Assembly: GCA_017395105.1 (NCBI GenBank)
Contig: JAFPWD010000046.1
Location: 1 to 39,491, forward strand
DNA from: Clostridia bacterium
Lineage (GTDB): Bacteria > Bacillota > Clostridia > Christensenellales > CAG-138
DNA: 39,491 nucleotides
Reading direction: 5' to 3'
Part shown: positions 4,147 to 14,577 of the stretch, in pieces
Position numbering within the stretch: the first letter of the stretch is position 1
Layout of the letters: each line of letters begins with the position of its first letter
The notes under the pieces: generated by a model
Databases searched by the model: none
The model's input: only the letters and a program-made list of their open reading frames with translations
Told to the model about the DNA's origin: nothing
Made by a program: the position numbers and the translations under genes

Positions 4147-4854
4147 ATGAATATTTACGCTGCCGCTTCGCTTTTTGCGGTGCTGATACTTCTATACATC
4201 ATCATTTCGGAAGTGTTCACCCTGCTCTTCCGCCTGATCGGTCTGCCCGAGGAAAAGGCGCGGTTTCAGGTGGTTTCGCTGCTCACGGGCTCGGGCTTCA
4301 CCACGCGCGAAAGCGAAATGATCATCTCAACGAGGCGCAGAAGGCGGCTTGCGAGGGTAACGATGCTTTTCGGCTACGTTTTCAATATCTCGGTCGTTTC
4401 GGCGTTTATCAACGTGTTTATGTCGCTCAAGATAACGCAGGTGGGGCAGTACGTTCTGGGACTTCTGATCCCGGTCGGCATGGTGGCGCTTTTGATAATC
4501 ATTCTGCGCATCCCCGCCGTGCGCTCGTTCGGAAGTGCGCTCGTTTTAAAGGCGGTCGGCAATATAACGCATACAAAAACTGCGAACACCGTTATGATAA
4601 TCGATCATATCGGAAACGGCACGATAGCACAGGTACATGTTCGCGAGGTGCCGGAGGCGCTTTCGGGCAAAAAGCTTTTTGAATCGCGCATCAAGGAGGA
4701 GCACAATATCCTGATCATGCTCATTGAGGATAAGCACGGCAGGGTGGAGCCTCCGCATAAGGACACGGTTTTTAACTTGGGCGAGAAGCTGACCGTTTTC
4801 GGTGATTATCAGAATATCTGCCGCGTGTTCGAGGCAAAGGAACATTTTGAATAA
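4147..4854 (+). CDS. Membrane protein with C-terminal TrkA-C (RCK_C) domain
   Basis: A 235-residue protein. Transmembrane helices lie at about 5-28, 71-92 and 100-120. A C-terminal domain at about 155-230 (VREVPEALSGKKLFESRI..HNILIML..., GEKLTVFGD) matches the TrkA-C fold that binds small ligands in K+ and other transporters. Between TM1 and TM2 is a loop, SLLTGSGFTTRESE, followed by an Arg-rich stretch. There is no RCK_N (NAD-binding) domain and the membrane part is too small for a full Trk/Ktr subunit, so it may be a sensor or an accessory subunit. Start: ATG 4147 directly precedes TM1 but has a weak ribosome site. A good AACGGAGG at about 4107 is followed only by non-ATG codons, and an in-frame ATG lies at 4090. 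The LRR gene starts 28 bp downstream. Confidence 0.7.
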   Translation: MNIYAAASLFAVLILLYIIISEVFTLLFRLIGLPEEKARFQVVSLLTGSGFTTRESEMIISTRRRRRLARVTMLFGYVFNISVVSAFINVFMSLKITQVGQYVLGLLIPVGMVALLIIILRIPAVRSFGSALVLKAVGNITHTKTANTVMIIDHIGNGTIAQVHVREVPEALSGKKLFESRIKEEHNILIMLIEDKHGRVEPPHKDTVFNLGEKLTVFGDYQNICRVFEAKEHFE

Positions 4855-4882
4855 AAATCATTTGGTTTTCGGAGGAGTTAAA

Positions 4883-6487
4883 ATGAAAAAGCGTATTATC
4901 TCATTGGCCGCAGCGCTCGTTATGGCGCTCACTGCGCTGCCCGCGCTTGCGCTAGAGCAGGCTTCGGTCGAGCCCTGCTGGAACGTTCCGAGCGGATACA
5001 ATGCTGCGGATTACAACAAGATCGCTTCCTTTTTGGAGCAGACCGATGAGAGCGGCGTTAAGAACGGCGCGAAGCTCTCGGATAGCTACGATCCGAATAA
5101 CCCCAACTCCTGGGGCAGCACCTTCGGCTACGATCTGAACGGCAATTACACGCTCGTTCCGCGCGTGCTTTGGCGCACCGTCAGCGGAACCAAGCGCATG
5201 GATTCCGTTCGCCTCGAGAACAGCCGCCTTGTGGGCAACCTCGATCTTTCGGGGTGCACCGCGCTTAAATATTTATATTGTAATGTAAATAATATCGCTT
5301 CGCTTAACGTTTCGGGCTGCACTGCGCTTCAAACCGTTTATGCAAGCGGAAATGAGTTCACCTCGGTGAACGTTTCGGGCTGCACTCAGCTAACGAGCCT
5401 TTCGGTTGCGGACAGCAGGCTGACCGGCCTTTCGGTTTCGGGGCTTACGCGCCTAAAGTCGCTCTCCTGCGCGGGCAACGAGATCGCTTCGCTGAACGTT
5501 TCCTATATGAGCGCGCTTGAAACGCTGAACTGTATGCACAACGGCATGACCAATCTGAATGTTACGGGCTGCGCCGTGCTCGATTCGCTCTTTTGTGACG
5601 ACAATGCGCTGACCTCGCTCGATCTGACGGGCTGTAATTACCTCAGGCTGCTCGGCTGCTCGAAGAATGCGCTGACCGCGCTCGATTGCTCAAGCAAAAA
5701 CCGCCTGCAGGAGGTGGAGTGCAGCGATAATATGATCGCGAATCTGAACCTAACCGGCTGCACCGCGCTCAAGATGCTCTACTGCGGCAAAAACCGCATT
5801 TCGTCGCTGAACTTCACGGCAAGCGGGCTGAAAATTCTTCATTGTCAGGAGAACCTGCTTACCGCGCTGAACACCTCGGGCTATTCCCAGCTTGAGGAGC
5901 TCGTTTGCGGCGACAACAGGATCGCGAGCCTGAATCTTTCATCAAACAGGCAGCTTTGGAAGCTTTACTGCGAGAACAACGCGCTGACCGCGCTTTCGCT
6001 CAATAACAACACCGCGCTGACCAATCTGAAAACGCATGGCAACGCGCTGACCGCGCTTTCGCTCTCCGCGATCTCTGCGCTTCCCATGAACACGCTGAAC
6101 ACGCAGGGCGGCGGCTATATCGGCTATGATCATTTCGTAACAGCCGGAGTGCGCACGAGCATGGTTTTCGCCGTACCCGCGCCCGGAAACCGCTTCGAGG
6201 GCTGGTACACCTCCTCGGGCAGCCTCGTTTCAACCGCCTTGGAATACAATCTGGATTATCAGAACGCGCCCACTGCGCTGACCGCACGCTTTACGGCGGC
6301 GGGGCTGATCGGCGACGTGGACGGAAACGGGGCGGTGAACATTGCGGATGCCGTGCTCGCGCTTCGCTATGCGATGGGGCTTATCGGCAGCCTGCCCTGC
6401 CCCGAGAACGGCGATTTGGACGGCACGGACAGCATAACGGTTGCGGATGCGCTGGCGATCATGCGCCTTGCGATGGGCATAGCGTAA
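4883..6487 (+). CDS. Secreted leucine-rich-repeat protein with InlB-like repeat and type I dockerin
   Basis: 534 residues. There is a signal peptide (1-24, ending LPALALEQ) and an N-terminal module at 39-78 (GVKNGAKL ... SWG) that recurs in the anti-sigma-type protein at 34864-37236. About a dozen short LRRs of the form L.C..N.L..LNVSGC.AL follow (about 100-425). Next comes a bacterial InlB-B-like repeat (APGNRFEGWYTSSGSLVS) and a C-terminal type I dockerin (475-534) with two calcium-binding F-hand segments, DVDGNGAVNIADAVLALRY and DLDGTDSITVADALAIMRL. The dockerin predicts calcium-dependent docking to a cohesin on the cell surface or a scaffoldin. No cohesin lies in this window. The LRRs suggest protein or glycan binding. 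GGAGGAG lies eight bases before the start at 4883. Confidence 0.9.
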   Translation: MKKRIISLAAALVMALTALPALALEQASVEPCWNVPSGYNAADYNKIASFLEQTDESGVKNGAKLSDSYDPNNPNSWGSTFGYDLNGNYTLVPRVLWRTVSGTKRMDSVRLENSRLVGNLDLSGCTALKYLYCNVNNIASLNVSGCTALQTVYASGNEFTSVNVSGCTQLTSLSVADSRLTGLSVSGLTRLKSLSCAGNEIASLNVSYMSALETLNCMHNGMTNLNVTGCAVLDSLFCDDNALTSLDLTGCNYLRLLGCSKNALTALDCSSKNRLQEVECSDNMIANLNLTGCTALKMLYCGKNRISSLNFTASGLKILHCQENLLTALNTSGYSQLEELVCGDNRIASLNLSSNRQLWKLYCENNALTALSLNNNTALTNLKTHGNALTALSLSAISALPMNTLNTQGGGYIGYDHFVTAGVRTSMVFAVPAPGNRFEGWYTSSGSLVSTALEYNLDYQNAPTALTARFTAAGLIGDVDGNGAVNIADAVLALRYAMGLIGSLPCPENGDLDGTDSITVADALAIMRLAMGIA

Positions 6488-7778: not shown

Positions 7779-9398
7779 ATGACGAAAAGAACCCGAAGAT
7801 GGATGCTTGCCGCGATAGCTTTGATAGTTATCATGGCTGCGGTAAGCATGATCGCACTTGCCGAGGGCGAGGAAGCTCCGGCATCACCGTTCTATAAAAC
7901 CTTCTGGTCGCTTCTGCCGCCGATAATCGCAATCGCGCTGGCGCTCATCACAAAAGAGGTCTACACGTCGCTTTTCGTCGGCATCATAGTCGGCGGATTA
8001 CTGTATGCAAATTTCAATCTTGAAGTAACCCTCACGCACGCATTCAACAACGGCATAGTCGCTTCCCTCTCGGAAGCCTACAACGTGGGTATCCTCGTGT
8101 TCCTCGTCATACTCGGCGTGATCGTTATGATGATGAACAAGGCGGGCGGCTCCGCTGCCTTCGGCAGATGGGCTTCCTCAAAGATAAAATCGAGAACGGG
8201 CGCACAGCTCGCCACCGTCGCGCTCGGTTCGCTCATCTTCATCGACGACTATTTCAACTGCCTCACCGTTGGCTCGGTCATGCGCCCCGTTACGGATAAG
8301 AGCAGGATCAGTCGCGCAAAGCTTGCCTATCTTATCGATGCCACCGCCGCGCCGATCTGTATCATTGCGCCTATCTCGTCATGGGCGGCCGCCGTTTCAT
8401 CGTGCGTAAAGAATGTAAACGGTCTGGAGGTGTTCATAAAGGCGATACCCTTCAATTTCTACGCGATACTCACTCTGATAATGATGATCTTCCTTGCGAT
8501 CACCAAGCTGGACTACGGTCCGATGGCGAAGCATGAGAAGAACGCGCAGGAAAAGGGCGATCTCTTCTCGGGCATGAAGGCGCTTGCAGAGGAGGCGAAT
8601 GAAAACGCCAACCCCAAGGGCAAGGTTATCGATCTTGTGCTTCCCATCGTGCTGCTCATCATCTGCTGTGTAATCGGCATGATCTACTCCGGCGGCTTCT
8701 TCGAGGGTAAGGACTTCATCTCGTCATTCTCCGATTCGGATGCCTCCGTCGGTCTTATGCTCGGCTCGGCGGTAACGCTGATAATCACCTTCATCTACTA
8801 CCTCTGCCGCCGCGTGCTCTCCTTCAAGGATCTGACCGGCTGCATTCCCGAGGGCTTCAAGTCCATGGTTCCCGCGATCCTCATTCTGACCTTTGCATGG
8901 AGCCTCAAGGCGATGACCGACAGTCTTGGCGCTGCGGCATACGTTGAAGGTATAGTTCAAACCTCGGCGGAAGGCTTCCAGATCTTCCTGCCCGTGATAA
9001 TCTTCCTTATTGCCTGCGGTCTTTCGTTCGCAACCGGCACCAGCTGGGGCACCTTCGGCATACTTATCCCGATCACGCTCAGCGTGTTCCCGCTGACAGC
9101 TCCCCTCGGCGTGGTCTGTGTCAGCGCGTGCATGGCGGGCGCGGTTTGCGGCGATCACTGCTCCCCGATATCCGATACCACCATCATGGCGAGCGCGGGC
9201 GCACAATGCGACCACGTTGCGCACGTTTCAACGCAGCTCCCGTATGCGCTGACAGTGGCGGGCGTAAGTGCGGTCACGTATCTGTTGACCGGCGTGTTCA
9301 ACCTTATCCCCGGCTTCCCCCTGATTCTCGCTCTCCCCATCGGCATAATTCTGATGATCTGCACGCTGCTCATCATAAGGCTTTTCAAAAAGCCCTAA
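7779..9398 (+). CDS. NhaC-family Na+/H+ antiporter-like transporter
   Basis: 539 residues with about eleven or twelve membrane segments. Family signatures are present in order: FIDDYFNCLTVG in the middle of the first half, FATGTSWGTFGILIPI and GDHCSPISDTTIMASAGA in the second half. NhaC-type proteins exchange Na+ for H+, or in some members exchange organic substrates such as malate/lactate. The substrate here cannot be told. Unusually, the first 30 residues (basic start, hydrophobic core, ALAEGEE) look like a cleavable signal peptide before the first antiporter helix. The start at 7779 has a GAGAGGAG site; an earlier in-frame start at 7707 falls inside the promoter region and is rejected. It stands alone between a promoter/operator and a hairpin. 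Confidence 0.9.
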   Translation: MTKRTRRWMLAAIALIVIMAAVSMIALAEGEEAPASPFYKTFWSLLPPIIAIALALITKEVYTSLFVGIIVGGLLYANFNLEVTLTHAFNNGIVASLSEAYNVGILVFLVILGVIVMMMNKAGGSAAFGRWASSKIKSRTGAQLATVALGSLIFIDDYFNCLTVGSVMRPVTDKSRISRAKLAYLIDATAAPICIIAPISSWAAAVSSCVKNVNGLEVFIKAIPFNFYAILTLIMMIFLAITKLDYGPMAKHEKNAQEKGDLFSGMKALAEEANENANPKGKVIDLVLPIVLLIICCVIGMIYSGGFFEGKDFISSFSDSDASVGLMLGSAVTLIITFIYYLCRRVLSFKDLTGCIPEGFKSMVPAILILTFAWSLKAMTDSLGAAAYVEGIVQTSAEGFQIFLPVIIFLIACGLSFATGTSWGTFGILIPITLSVFPLTAPLGVVCVSACMAGAVCGDHCSPISDTTIMASAGAQCDHVAHVSTQLPYALTVAGVSAVTYLLTGVFNLIPGFPLILALPIGIILMICTLLIIRLFKKP

Positions 9399-9446
9399 AA
9401 GAGCCGAGGCCGTCAAGACCTTGATTGAGAATCCACATTACCTCCC

Positions 9447-9478
9447 AAGCCCCCGTTCGCAGCGCCGAGCGGGGGCTT
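9447..9478. terminator. Hairpin after the NhaC-type gene
   Basis: AAGCCCCCG (9447-9455) pairs perfectly with CGGGGGCTT (9470-9478). There is no long U-run on the plus strand, so it may act as an imperfect terminator or an mRNA-end stabiliser. Confidence 0.6.
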
Positions 9479-9483
9479 AAAAC

Positions 9484-9576
9484 TCAAATATACTTTATAA
9501 ATAAGGCAAATTTCGCTTGCCTTAAATGCCTTGCGGTACTATAATAGAAGCGGACTTTGTTTCCGTTTATTCTTTT
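9484..9576 (+). promoter_or_regulatory. nifJ-type promoter/leader cassette, copy 1
   Basis: The same ordered parts as the nifJ promoter at 10923-11016: the 14-mer TCAAATATACTTTA (9484-9497), -35 TTGCCT (9517-9522), 17 bp, -10 TATAAT (9540-9545). An identical 31-base leader (9546-9576) follows, beginning AGAAGCGGACTTTG. An inverted repeat AAGGCAA/TTGCCTT (9503-9523) overlaps this copy's -35 and is absent from copy 2. No protein-coding gene follows it on the plus strand; it points at the structured segment 9583-9740. Confidence 0.75.
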
Positions 9577-9740
9577 TGATAGTGATTGAAAGCATTGCGA
9601 ATTAGTCCCCGAACAGGGTACCTTGCAGTGCGAAGGGAGCAATCAATAATGATTCGGTGCCCCCTTAGGGGGCGACTGCTGGTAAAAAAAGCCCCTTATA
9701 GGGGCAGAGCAAACCACCGGTGAACCGATGGTTATGATTT
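9552..9740 (+). ncRNA. Candidate structured RNA / palindrome-rich segment
   Basis: Downstream of the copy-1 promoter the sequence can form nested stems: TGATTG (9583-9588)/CAATCA (9640-9645), GCATTGC (9592-9598)/GCAGTGC (9625-9631, one G-U), and CCC/GGG around CGAACA. Next come the palindromes GCCCCCTTAGGGGGC (9659-9673), GCCCCTTATAGGGGC (9691-9705) and AACCACCGGT/ACCGATGGTT (9712-9733). I do not recognise a known riboswitch, T-box, 6S, SRP or tmRNA core. It could be a small RNA from the 9517 promoter or the remains of a palindromic mobile element. This segment fills the 349 bp gene-free stretch 9399-9747. Confidence 0.4.
9684..9705 (-). terminator. Terminator for the Abi_2 gene
   Basis: On the minus strand GCCCCTATAAGGGGC is followed by seven T (9690-9684), about 40 bp beyond the stop of the Abi_2 gene. 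Confidence 0.8.
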
Positions 9741-9747
9741 GGGAAAA

Positions 9748-10719
9748 TCAGCTATGATTGTCATCCGATTTATTTAACTGTTTATCTGTATTTCCATCTT
9801 TTTTATTGGGAATCATAATAGCTGAAGCAGCATTGAGCACTTCGCACCAGTTTTCTGGGAACCCGATAGACGATAATTCAATCATGTCATATCGAGATAT
9901 GAGTTCATCAAGTTTTCTAATAAAATCCGTTACATCATTTCTGCCGCGAAGAATATAACATAATGAGATAAGAATAGGAAAAAGCCTGTGGCTTCCGTTG
10001 TATTGGGCAAATCGCTTCGGCAGTTTAGGCAGGGATTTGAGCTGATAATCATATAGCCTACCGTAGTGGGCGCATATGTTTCTTAACTCAACAAGAGAAG
10101 CAAACCAACTTCGAACATAGGAATAATCCGTTGAGTAATGCTTGGCGATCGCCTTTTGGTCATCGCTGGACATAGATGAATAAAGCGTTGAAAGTGTGCC
10201 AAAACTTATTAGTTCAACAGCAACCCAAATTGGAAATTGACCGCCGTATTTACTATTGTGATGAATCACTATAGGTCGTGAACTCTGCTTCGCCACTTCG
10301 TTGTTTAACGAATCTATAAACTGATCGTAATATCGCTTATTGCTGAATCTTGATATATGATTATTGAAATTGCAATCATCCAAATAGCCAGCCGGACCAT
10401 ATTGTGATGCTAACCGATAGGCGATTTTTACTCGAAATTCGATCTCGACCGTTTCAATGATGCCCGATAGAAGATTTCTAAGCTGCGAGTCGAAAAGATA
10501 AATGGAATGCAGTTTGTTAAAACTGAAATTACTGATGTATCTGTCGGTTTTGGTATCGATCATGCCTATACCGTATCCTGAAAGCCTATAGTAGCCGACC
10601 GAAGCAAGTATTTCTTCGGCAAATGATTCGCTTTCGATTATAAGACCATGCTTGTCTCGTAAATGCTTGATCTGATCGGAATAGGTGAGCATTGGTTTTA
10701 GAGGAACTGCTGATTTCAT
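9748..10719 (-). CDS. Abi_2 (AbiD/AbiF-like) HEPN abortive-infection protein
   Basis: A 323-residue member of the Abi_2 family, phage-resistance proteins of the HEPN RNase superfamily. It shows the family N-terminus (TYSDQIKHLRDKHGLII, YYRLSGY at 43-49), a central helix pair (YLFDSQLRNLLSGIIETVEI at 74-93), PIWVAVELISFGTLSTLYSSM (163-183) and the catalytic R-X4-H motif RNICAH (213-218). It therefore probably cleaves RNA when released from control. The start at 10719 has GAGGTG seven bases upstream; a longer in-frame start at 10773 would lie within the leader RNA. A minus-strand consensus promoter and an attenuator-like hairpin with a U-run precede the start. Composition is clearly more A+T rich than nifJ next door, consistent with acquisition. 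Some Abi_2 proteins are reported to pair with RNA antitoxins. Confidence 0.9.
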   Translation of the reverse strand: MKSAVPLKPMLTYSDQIKHLRDKHGLIIESESFAEEILASVGYYRLSGYGIGMIDTKTDRYISNFSFNKLHSIYLFDSQLRNLLSGIIETVEIEFRVKIAYRLASQYGPAGYLDDCNFNNHISRFSNKRYYDQFIDSLNNEVAKQSSRPIVIHHNSKYGGQFPIWVAVELISFGTLSTLYSSMSSDDQKAIAKHYSTDYSYVRSWFASLVELRNICAHYGRLYDYQLKSLPKLPKRFAQYNGSHRLFPILISLCYILRGRNDVTDFIRKLDELISRYDMIELSSIGFPENWCEVLNAASAIMIPNKKDGNTDKQLNKSDDNHS

Positions 10720-10733
10720 AATGACACCTCGGA

Positions 10734-10795
10734 TAAAAAATGTCCCACCGTGGTTCGCAGTATGCTCTCGCATCTTATGCGTGGTGGGCTCTCTC
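10734..10795 (-). ncRNA. Candidate leader RNA (possible RNA antitoxin) of the Abi_2 gene
   Basis: Minus-strand transcription from the 10802-10830 promoter would begin near 10795 with GAGAGAGAG. It then folds: outer stem CCCACC (10788-10783)/GGTGGG (10749-10744), with inner hairpins CGCAT-AAG-ATGCG and GCA-TAC-TGC, then ACA and six U ending near 10734. The U-run after a GC stem is an intrinsic terminator, so most transcripts would be a short RNA of about 60 nt and only read-through would reach the Abi_2 start 15 nt later. That is the layout of RNA-antitoxin/toxin loci. Alternatively it is a simple attenuator. Confidence 0.5.
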
Positions 10796-10801
10796 TCTGT
10801 T

Positions 10802-10830
10802 ATTATATCCTATAATGAAAAGGATTGCAA
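10802..10830 (-). promoter_or_regulatory. SigA-type promoter for the Abi_2 leader and gene
   Basis: Minus-strand TTGCAA (10830-10825), exactly 17 bp, TATAAT (10807-10802). The predicted start is about 75 nt before the Abi_2 start codon. Confidence 0.75.
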
Positions 10831-10922
10831 CTGAAAAATCAGAAAAATTTAATATATTTCAGAAATGGGTGAACTGTTTTTGTTCTAATTTAACACGTCG
10901 GTGTTTGTAAAAACCTTCAGCT

Positions 10923-14577
<3,655 letters not shown>

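What the first reader, a model, noticed from the sequence alone, without database searches (positions are those of the whole stretch)
9748..10830. Abi_2/HEPN RNase gene preceded by a compact hairpin RNA with its own terminator: possible RNA-antitoxin system
Seen: a consensus minus-strand promoter (TTGCAA-17-TATAAT), about 60 nt that fold into a CCCACC/GGTGGG stem enclosing two small hairpins, six U, then only 15 nt to the start of a protein with an intact R-X4-H motif (RNICAH). Known: Abi_2/AbiF proteins are HEPN RNases, and I recall recent work linking AbiF-type proteins to structured RNA antitoxins and to the ancestry of Cas13. Inferred: the short RNA is made in excess and neutralises the protein, with attenuated read-through setting toxin level. 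The 3' side GGTGGGACA loosely recalls the GGGGACTA end of Cas13a repeats, which may be chance.
Basis: partly seen in the sequence, partly recalled or inferred. Interest (0 to 1): 0.78.

Follow-up and report, generated by a model that had tools for sequence, protein, structure and literature searches.

The report
AbiF toxin with hairpin RNA antitoxin
This bacterial locus makes a probable RNA-cutting toxin together with a small folded RNA that probably holds it in check, a known kind of anti-virus module here in a form that the RNA database misses, and some phages were found to carry the same kind of RNA without the toxin.

Summary
Observation right; interpretation largely right. The minus-strand gene (323 aa, ATG at 10719) is an Abi_2/HEPN protein, alignable over residues 4-291 with PbAbiF (PDB 8vz6) and 34% identical to AbiF of two C. 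difficile phages. The 62-nt leader (10735-10796) is real: a covariance model trained without it finds it at E 1.7e-16, and homologous leaders show compensatory changes, mostly in P1 and P3. It has the abiF-RNA architecture, but its loop carries an extra GNRA-capped helix (P3). Rfam RF03085 misses it and missed 20 of 20 close relatives scanned. On a tree of RNA-bearing homologues the window falls in a set of 28 rows, all with long loops. Most likely mechanism, by homology to tested systems: the RNA silences AbiF, and its outer stem plus U-run stops most transcription before the gene. Neither step is shown here. The cassette sits in a predicted promoter region uninterrupted in relatives, beside an IS200-like remnant. 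Unexpectedly, abiF RNAs often stand alone: 56 of 67 assessable exact-pattern matches in viral contigs show no toxin gene within 1.5 kb downstream, and cultured Bacillus phages carry one. They may be decoys.

The parts
10802..10830 (-). sigma-70-type promoter TTGCAA-17-TATAAT
   Evidence: 10 of 12; -10 box 13 nt before P1, the modal spacing in homologues
10735..10796 (-). abiF-like leader RNA, about 62 nt, with an extra helix (proposed antitoxin and attenuator)
   Evidence: held-out covariance model R1 71.7 bits, E 1.7e-16; fold z -4.87
10783..10788 (-). P1 5' arm CCCACC (partner 10744-10749)
   Evidence: all 6 pairs show changes on both sides among 67 distinct model matches in other loci
10779..10781 (-). 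P2 5' arm CGC (partner 10756-10758)
   Evidence: 98.4% of cells paired; only one of 3 pairs has a two-sided change
10762..10773 (-). P3 AUGC-GAGA-GCAU, the extra GNRA-capped helix
   Evidence: all 3 modelled P3 pairs show two-sided changes, but P3 columns are filled in only 22 to 25 of 67 rows and 5 of 18 rows do not pair in this register; loops listed
10750..10755 (-). single-stranded J2/1 AACCAC
   Evidence: GACCAC, GACCAG and GACCAA are the commonest forms, 61 of 127 unique leaders
10744..10749 (-). P1 3' arm GGUGGG
10735..10740 (-). U6 tract; with P1 a probable terminator
   Evidence: at least 5 T in the 10 nt after P1 in 127 of 127 unique descriptor-positive leaders, T being part of the descriptor score
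10725..10730 (-). ribosome-binding site GAGGTG
   Evidence: sequence
9748..10719 (-). abiF-like gene (Abi_2/HEPN, 323 aa)
   Evidence: Pfam PF07751 E 1.7e-50; PADLOC AbiD 5.4e-95; PDB 8vz6 5.4e-29 over residues 4-291
10066..10083 (-). RNICAH (R-X4-H) catalytic motif, residues 213-218
   Evidence: invariant R, N, C, A, H in alignment A6 of 63 proteins
9599..9743 (+). IS200-like right-end remnant holding the gene's downstream terminator hairpin (9691-9705, minus strand)
   Evidence: repeat found at contig ends in relatives; a copy about 79% identical follows a Y1_Tnp gene, Pfam E 4.5e-38; hairpin
9545..9576 (+). left copy of the 32-nt direct repeat flanking the cassette
   Evidence: one copy at this site in relatives
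10985..11016 (+). right copy of the 32-nt direct repeat, upstream of the pyruvate:ferredoxin oxidoreductase gene

Best explanation
An AbiF-type toxin-antitoxin module acquired by one strain. One promoter makes a 62-nt RNA. Its outer stem P1 followed by U6 terminates most transcripts, so the free RNA accumulates; it folds as P1-P2-P3 and binds an AbiF homodimer through P2, the ACCAC linker and P1, blocking the HEPN RNase. Read-through and translation from the GAGGTG site supply a little toxin. If phage infection stops host transcription, the RNA decays, AbiF is freed and cuts RNA, and the cell stops growing. Shown here: the gene family, the intact motif, the conserved covarying RNA with a conserved promoter box, its place before the gene, and acquisition within the genus. 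Inferred from homologues tested by others: toxicity, binding, neutralisation and attenuation. Inferred only: which RNA parts touch the protein, and phage triggering by loss of RNA.
For: (protein; 8vz6 match over residues 4-291); 34% to Abi proteins of phages phiC2 and phiCDKH02; held-out model finds the leader at E 1.7e-16; next best place in 39.5 kb, both strands, is E 1.1; covariation, controls far lower on most measures; 61 of 98 loci given have a model match at E <= 0.01, 60 of the 61 ending 3 to 77 nt before the chosen Abi start, the other (L145) 381 nt before; 41 of 96 more loci, 42 matches, 38 of them next to the start. Link to Rfam: L009 and L011 match RF03085 and R1 at the same place; promoter box, median 25 nt to the gene, RNA type clustered on the protein tree. 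PMC12373285 and PMC12737573 passages: RNA neutralises AbiF; RCd22 stops at a terminator.
Against: No transcript, toxicity or binding data for this locus. The window RNA does not match RF03085, not even at E <= 10. P1 encloses a 34-nt structured loop, so the simple terminator scan (loops 3-8) does not list it. RCd22 has two motifs and a separate terminator; here there is one motif and P1 would have to be the terminator. 37 of 98 and 55 of 96 loci gave no model match at E <= 0.01. Of the 39 unique closest homologue leaders, three (L105, L126, L136) have neither a model match nor the descriptor, so even some close AbiF genes lack a leader of this kind. Two of five covariation measures on the training alignment are weak: pairs with two-sided change 14 of 500 shuffles, further pair types 173 of 500.
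Confidence: 0.85

Rival explanations
1. The leader is only a cis-acting attenuator or riboswitch-like switch for the gene and does not act on the protein in trans.
For: P1 plus U-run stands right before the gene; L. lactis abiD1 has a regulated structured leader and a short premature transcript (as told in PMC12373285, passage).
Against: Unpaired positions (ACCAC, loop) are conserved beyond what termination needs; RNA type tracks the protein tree; RCd22 works in trans (PMC12373285 abstract); the RNA occurs without the gene.
Confidence: 0.1
2. A decaying or non-functional acquired cassette: the protein is not made or not active and the RNA persists by inertia.
For: Strain-specific copy beside an IS remnant; long end branch 0.77.
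Against: Reading frame intact and invariant residues kept; promoter and all three helices intact.
Confidence: 0.04
3. An ordinary intrinsic terminator or untranslated leader that folds by chance.
For: G+C-rich stem plus U-run.
Against: Held-out model E 1.7e-16; covariation score 0.358 against 0.114 shuffled and at most 0.073 slid.
Confidence: 0.01

Closest known systems
C. difficile AbiF_Cd / RCd22 (Saunier et al. 2025, PMC12373285: abstract, section 7, part 1 of section 13, passages)
   Same: Abi_2/AbiD/F HEPN toxin (the copies in phages phiC2 and phiCDKH02 are 34% identical to the window protein), structured RNA upstream on the same strand, one promoter, termination before the gene, RNQCAH motif.
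   Different: RCd22 has two RF03085 motifs and a separate terminator; the window has one motif with an extra helix P3, and P1 itself nearly abuts the U-run (3 nt between).
Prevotellaceae PbAbiF with its ncRNA, PDB 8vz6 (Zilberzwige-Tal et al., paper not seen; known through PMC12373285 and PMC12737573 passages)
   Same: Protein alignable over residues 4-291; ncRNA bound to a HEPN homodimer.
   Different: The RNA sequence of 8vz6 was not available here, so the RNAs were not compared.
Rfam RF03085 abiF RNA
   Same: P1, P2, linker and position before Abi_2 genes; leaders L009 and L011 match both models.
   Different: The 11-nt loop is replaced by a 20-nt loop with P3; no match at the gathering threshold.
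Type III toxin-antitoxin systems (ToxIN and kin, as described in PMC12373285 passages)
   Same: RNA antitoxin from the same promoter as an RNase toxin, split by a terminator.
   Different: Different toxin and RNA structures; here no tandem repeats.
Phage pseudo-ToxI (PMC3475682, abstract) and RNA anti-CRISPRs (PMC10651486, search listing)
   Same: Phage copies of a host defence RNA without the host effector: the model for the solitary abiF RNAs.
   Different: Those target ToxN and Cas proteins; I found no test of this for abiF RNAs.

Membership tests
AbiF (AbiD/F) toxin family | Abi_2 domain | tested here: met
   PF07751 172.3 bits, cut-off 25.6
AbiF (AbiD/F) toxin family | intact HEPN R-X4-H | tested here: met
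   RNICAH; R213, N214, C216, A217 and H218 invariant in 63 proteins
AbiF (AbiD/F) toxin family | homology to a structurally proven AbiF | tested here: met
   8vz6 E 5.4e-29, residues 4-291
AbiF (AbiD/F) toxin family | toxicity by RNase activity | not testable with these tools
   needs expression in a laboratory strain
Rfam RF03085 abiF RNA | match at gathering score 37 | tested here: not met
   no match in the window, none at E <= 10; 0 of 20 close relatives
abiF-type RNA in the wider sense | P1/P2/linker architecture just upstream of Abi_2, continuous with RF03085 members | tested here: met
   held-out hit; L009 and L011 match both models
Type III toxin-antitoxin system | RNA upstream of the toxin gene under one promoter, with a terminator between | tested here: met
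   anatomy only; termination itself not shown
Type III toxin-antitoxin system | RNA binds and neutralises the protein | not testable with these tools
   needs expression and binding assays
Type III toxin-antitoxin system | tandem antitoxin repeats (classical ToxI) | tested here: not met
   one motif in the leader
Cas13-related RNA-guided system | CRISPR array or spacer-repeat units | tested here: not met
   only three two-copy direct repeats in 9300-11200, no array; one RNA unit

The most novel reading that the evidence does not exclude
The abiF RNA is also a free-standing arms-race element. Phages and some bacteria carry solitary abiF RNAs without the toxin, often among phage tRNA genes. In phages they act as RNA decoys that occupy and silence host AbiF (an RNA anti-AbiF, analogous to pseudo-ToxI and RNA anti-CRISPRs). 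In bacterial chromosomes they may protect against incoming AbiF elements. The extra-helix RNA of the window's set of proteins would then mark an antitoxin specificity group that decoys must match; that last point is speculation.
Probability: 0.45. Interest if true: 0.8.

Novelty: new variant of a known kind. Interest (0 to 1): 0.55.

Why it matters
AbiF and its RNA are the reported ancestors of Cas13 systems (PMC12737573 and PMC12165695, passages), so the range of antitoxin RNA shapes shows what a pre-CRISPR guide could look like. The standard RNA library missed the RNA in the window and in all 20 close relatives scanned, so such toxins would be annotated without their antitoxin. If the solitary phage RNAs are decoys, they are a counter-defence readable by sequence, testable at once with laboratory phages of Bacillus subtilis such as SBSphiJ.

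Tried and rejected
Rfam at the gathering threshold and at E <= 10 on the window: nothing useful. The search for related loci with the single protein: no relative in genome contigs or viral contigs; the alignment query worked (each kept the best 80, of 528 and of 162 confirmed stretches). A second R1 match in the own genome (C25:56161, 26 bits, E 0.007) has no Abi gene; by eye it is an ordinary terminator. A first mixed alignment (A2) was misregistered in P1 and not used; A3 was inspected only. Seven descriptor rows, mostly misplaced helices, were removed by eye before the counts. The loop class 'AUAAG+P3' lumps CUCGG loops of a separate group (L250, L254-L256) with the window's type. The tree holds only descriptor-positive loci, so homologues without the RNA are not on it. 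Cas13a-repeat likeness: not tested. Remnant explanation for solitary RNAs: true for 2 of 58 (L312, L333), not shown for the rest.

Full report
What is there. On the minus strand a TTGCAA-17-TATAAT promoter (10830-10802), a 62-nt leader (10796-10735), GAGGTG and an ATG at 10719 open a 323-aa gene ending at 9748. The protein is Abi_2 (Pfam E 1.7e-50; PADLOC AbiD 5.4e-95). The one PDB sequence it matches at E <= 1 is 8vz6 (5.4e-29, residues 4-291), which is PbAbiF according to PMC12737573 (passage). RNICAH is intact and its R, N, C, A and H are invariant in 63 proteins.

Is the RNA real? Alone it folds far better than shuffles (z -4.87, 0 of 200). Leaders of many, not all, homologues show the same shape by eye. 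I built a covariance model, R1, from 18 leaders without the window. It finds the window leader at 71.7 bits, E 1.7e-16; the next place in the window has E 1.1. On the training alignment 92.6% of cells pair and the covariation score is 0.370 against 0.136 shuffled and at most 0.097 slid; two other measures are weak (pairs with two-sided change 7 against 4.5, reached by 14 of 500 shuffles; further pair types 13 against 11.8, reached by 173 of 500). On 67 distinct R1 matches from other loci (E <= 1; aligned to the model and so leaning towards it; two, L027 and L074, do not lie at leaders) 98.0% of cells pair, 10 of 12 pairs change on both sides, and the score is 0.358 against 0.114 shuffled and at most 0.073 slid. 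P2 varies little, and P3 is present in only 22 to 25 of those rows.

How regular is it? R1 matched 61 of 98 loci at E <= 0.01 (98 of 138 loci then held were given; 17 training loci and 23 near-duplicates, fragments, weak matches or the window itself were not). Sixty of the 61 end 3 to 77 nt before the chosen Abi start; L145 lies 381 nt before it. R1 matched 41 of 96 later loci, 42 matches, 38 next to the start; the exceptions are L166, L251 (start choice), a second copy in L172 and an opposite-strand one in L231. A model-free descriptor gave 163 of 233 Abi loci at or above the 98th percentile of 120 shuffled leaders. After seven rows were removed by eye, 127 unique leaders remained. Of these 115 have a TATAAT-like box upstream of P1 (35.2 expected), most often 13 nt before P1 as in the window. 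The median distance from P1 to the start codon is 25 nt; the window has 24. Against this: among the 39 unique closest leaders, L105, L126 and L136 have no such RNA by either test (L128 also failed the descriptor and was not given to R1, but shows the RNA by eye with an extra base in P1).

What kind of RNA? It shares P1, P2, the ACCAC linker and position with Rfam abiF RNA (RF03085). Two intermediate leaders, L009 and L011, match both RF03085 and R1. But the window does not match RF03085, nor did any of 20 close relatives. The usual 11-nt loop (64 of 127 unique leaders) is replaced by AUAAG-P3-ACU. Of the 16 rows with AUAAG or CUCGG loops of this kind, window included and L002 and L137 being one genome, 12 end in a GNRA tetraloop, one in UUCG, and three do not (L113, L133, L188). 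In a quick tree of 126 descriptor-positive proteins the window lies in a set of 28 rows (SH-aLRT 95, no bootstrap), all with long loops. The short-loop label needs 13 changes on the tree against 42.4 when shuffled. Long loops also occur elsewhere in the tree, so they arose or were lost more than once. The published AbiF covariance models of Zilberzwige-Tal et al., mentioned in PMC12804078 (passage), may already cover this type; I could not check.

How it works. In C. difficile AbiF_Cd is toxic, its RNA RCd22 binds and neutralises it in trans, and most transcripts stop before the gene (PMC12373285: abstract, section 7, part 1 of section 13 and passages). The copies of that protein in phages phiC2 and phiCDKH02 are 34% identical to the window protein. 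The window locus has every part needed for the same logic in a leaner form: one motif whose P1 is 3 nt from U6. I infer RNA antitoxin plus attenuator. Phage triggering is inference by analogy with type III systems.

Where it came from. None of the 10 other same-genus genomes searched has the protein at E <= 0.001. In the same-genus genome G008 the flanks at 9576 and 10979 meet and share 37 nt, one copy of the sequence doubled in the window. The cassette thus interrupts the predicted promoter region of a pyruvate:ferredoxin oxidoreductase gene and is flanked by a 32-nt perfect repeat inside a longer imperfect one. At 9599-9743 lies a repeat that in relatives ends contigs. A related copy follows a Y1_Tnp gene, so I read it as an IS200-like end. 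The own genome is 68% complete, so further copies cannot be excluded.

The unexpected part, in bacteria. R1 run on 381 genomes of the class, with filters that lose weak matches, gave 16 places in 15 genomes at E <= 1e-4. Eight, the window among them, have an Abi ORF on the RNA's strand within the 3-kb locus; eight have none by profile or downstream by tblastn. By eye those eight keep P1 and P2 and mostly a U-run; four (L260, L261, L263, L266) have AUAAG or UUA loops like the extra-helix types. One (G660, L273/L281) lies among phage replication genes and one (L274/L282) precedes a RhuM-family gene.

In viral contigs. Exact-pattern scans of IMG/VR gave 3 stretches for the window's extra-helix type and 76 for the short-loop type, 79 RNA places. 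Nine have Abi directly downstream, 58 do not, and 12 are too near an end. Of the 58, two carry Abi fragments (L312, L333) and 56 show no trace within 1.5 kb by tblastn with the Abi proteins collected here. All 58 are of the short-loop type: of the three extra-helix stretches one has Abi and two could not be assessed. P1 pairs perfectly over at least 6 bp in 35 of 47 unique cases against 3.9 with shuffled partners, maximum 8 in 200 shuffles, which speaks for a maintained fold. Fifteen of 58 lie within 100 nt of a tRNA gene, all on the same strand; 4.3 are expected for random positions in the same loci. Against a simple stand-alone gene: only 21 of 58 have a TATAAT-like box (9.9 expected) and only 21 of 51 with a P1 have 5 or more T in the 10 nt after it, so many would have to be cut from longer transcripts. 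Some IMG/VR contigs may be host DNA.

In cultured phages. A 46-nt query from one such contig (L340) matched 94 of 50,697 phage records at E <= 10, 31 of them over at least 80% of the query: 30 Bacillus phage records, some of them GenBank/RefSeq duplicates, and one 'Bacteriophage sp.' from human faeces. Six Bacillus phages examined (phiNIT1, SBSphiJ, Grass, 010DV004, BvP, SBSphiJ5) and Bacillus phage P59, where the RNA sits inside a tRNA array, match R1 at E 5e-6 to 0.0016 over 28 kb. In the six, P1 is shorter and no U-run follows (by eye). None of the seven matches RF03085 at its gathering score. Enterococcus, Staphylococcus and Sulfurimonas phages share the core letters but gave no R1 match. 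No Bacillus phage is among the 84 phage records with a relative of the window protein at E <= 1e-5. P59 infects Cytobacillus oceanisediminis, a species whose plasmids carry relatives of this gene.

Is that known? Solitary phage abiF RNA has been noted in cyanophage S-CREM1 and called probably functional without a mechanism in the passages I saw (PMC9964418). In the lists returned by full-text searches (several cut to the best rows) I saw no paper that proposes it as an anti-AbiF decoy; most subscription papers are outside that library. The precedents are pseudo-ToxI (PMC3475682, abstract) and RNA anti-CRISPRs (PMC10651486, search listing). Decoy function is inferred, not shown.

Verdict. It is a new variant of a known kind, with a testable lead on phage-borne antitoxin RNAs.

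Noticed in passing
window 9577-10978: The cassette is a strain-specific insertion in the predicted promoter region of the pyruvate:ferredoxin oxidoreductase gene; relatives have the site uninterrupted.
   Followed up: yes
window 9545-9576 and 10985-11016: 32-nt perfect direct repeats inside longer imperfect ones flank the insertion; the left copy is nearly identical to the uninterrupted site of relatives, the right copy is diverged upstream of the repeat.
   Followed up: partly
window 9599-9743: IS200-like right end without transposase, whose hairpin probably terminates the abi gene.
   Followed up: partly
L260, L261, L263, L265, L266, L271, L273, L274: Solitary abiF RNAs without Abi gene in bacterial genomes; L273/L281 lies among phage genes, L274/L282 precedes a RhuM-family gene.
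   Followed up: partly
L286-L361, 58 places: abiF RNAs without an Abi gene in viral contigs, two of them (L312, L333) with Abi fragments; 15 of 58 within 100 nt of tRNA genes.
   Followed up: partly
L362-L366, L370, L371: Cultured Bacillus phages, SBSphiJ among them, carry an abiF RNA among tRNA genes; no feature is annotated at the match in these records. In P59 a skipping-rope RNA lies right beside it.
   Followed up: partly
L231:4373-4434 (-): Viral contig with one abiF gene and, on the opposite strand, a second extra-helix RNA (64.6 bits) followed by a start codon but no Abi frame seen by eye.
   Followed up: partly
L172:930-982 and 1415-1467: Two abiF RNAs before one Abi gene; the upstream one looks like a relic of a lost copy.
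   Followed up: partly
window 4802-6487: Leucine-rich-repeat protein with a weak InlB B-repeat match just under its cut-off.
   Followed up: no
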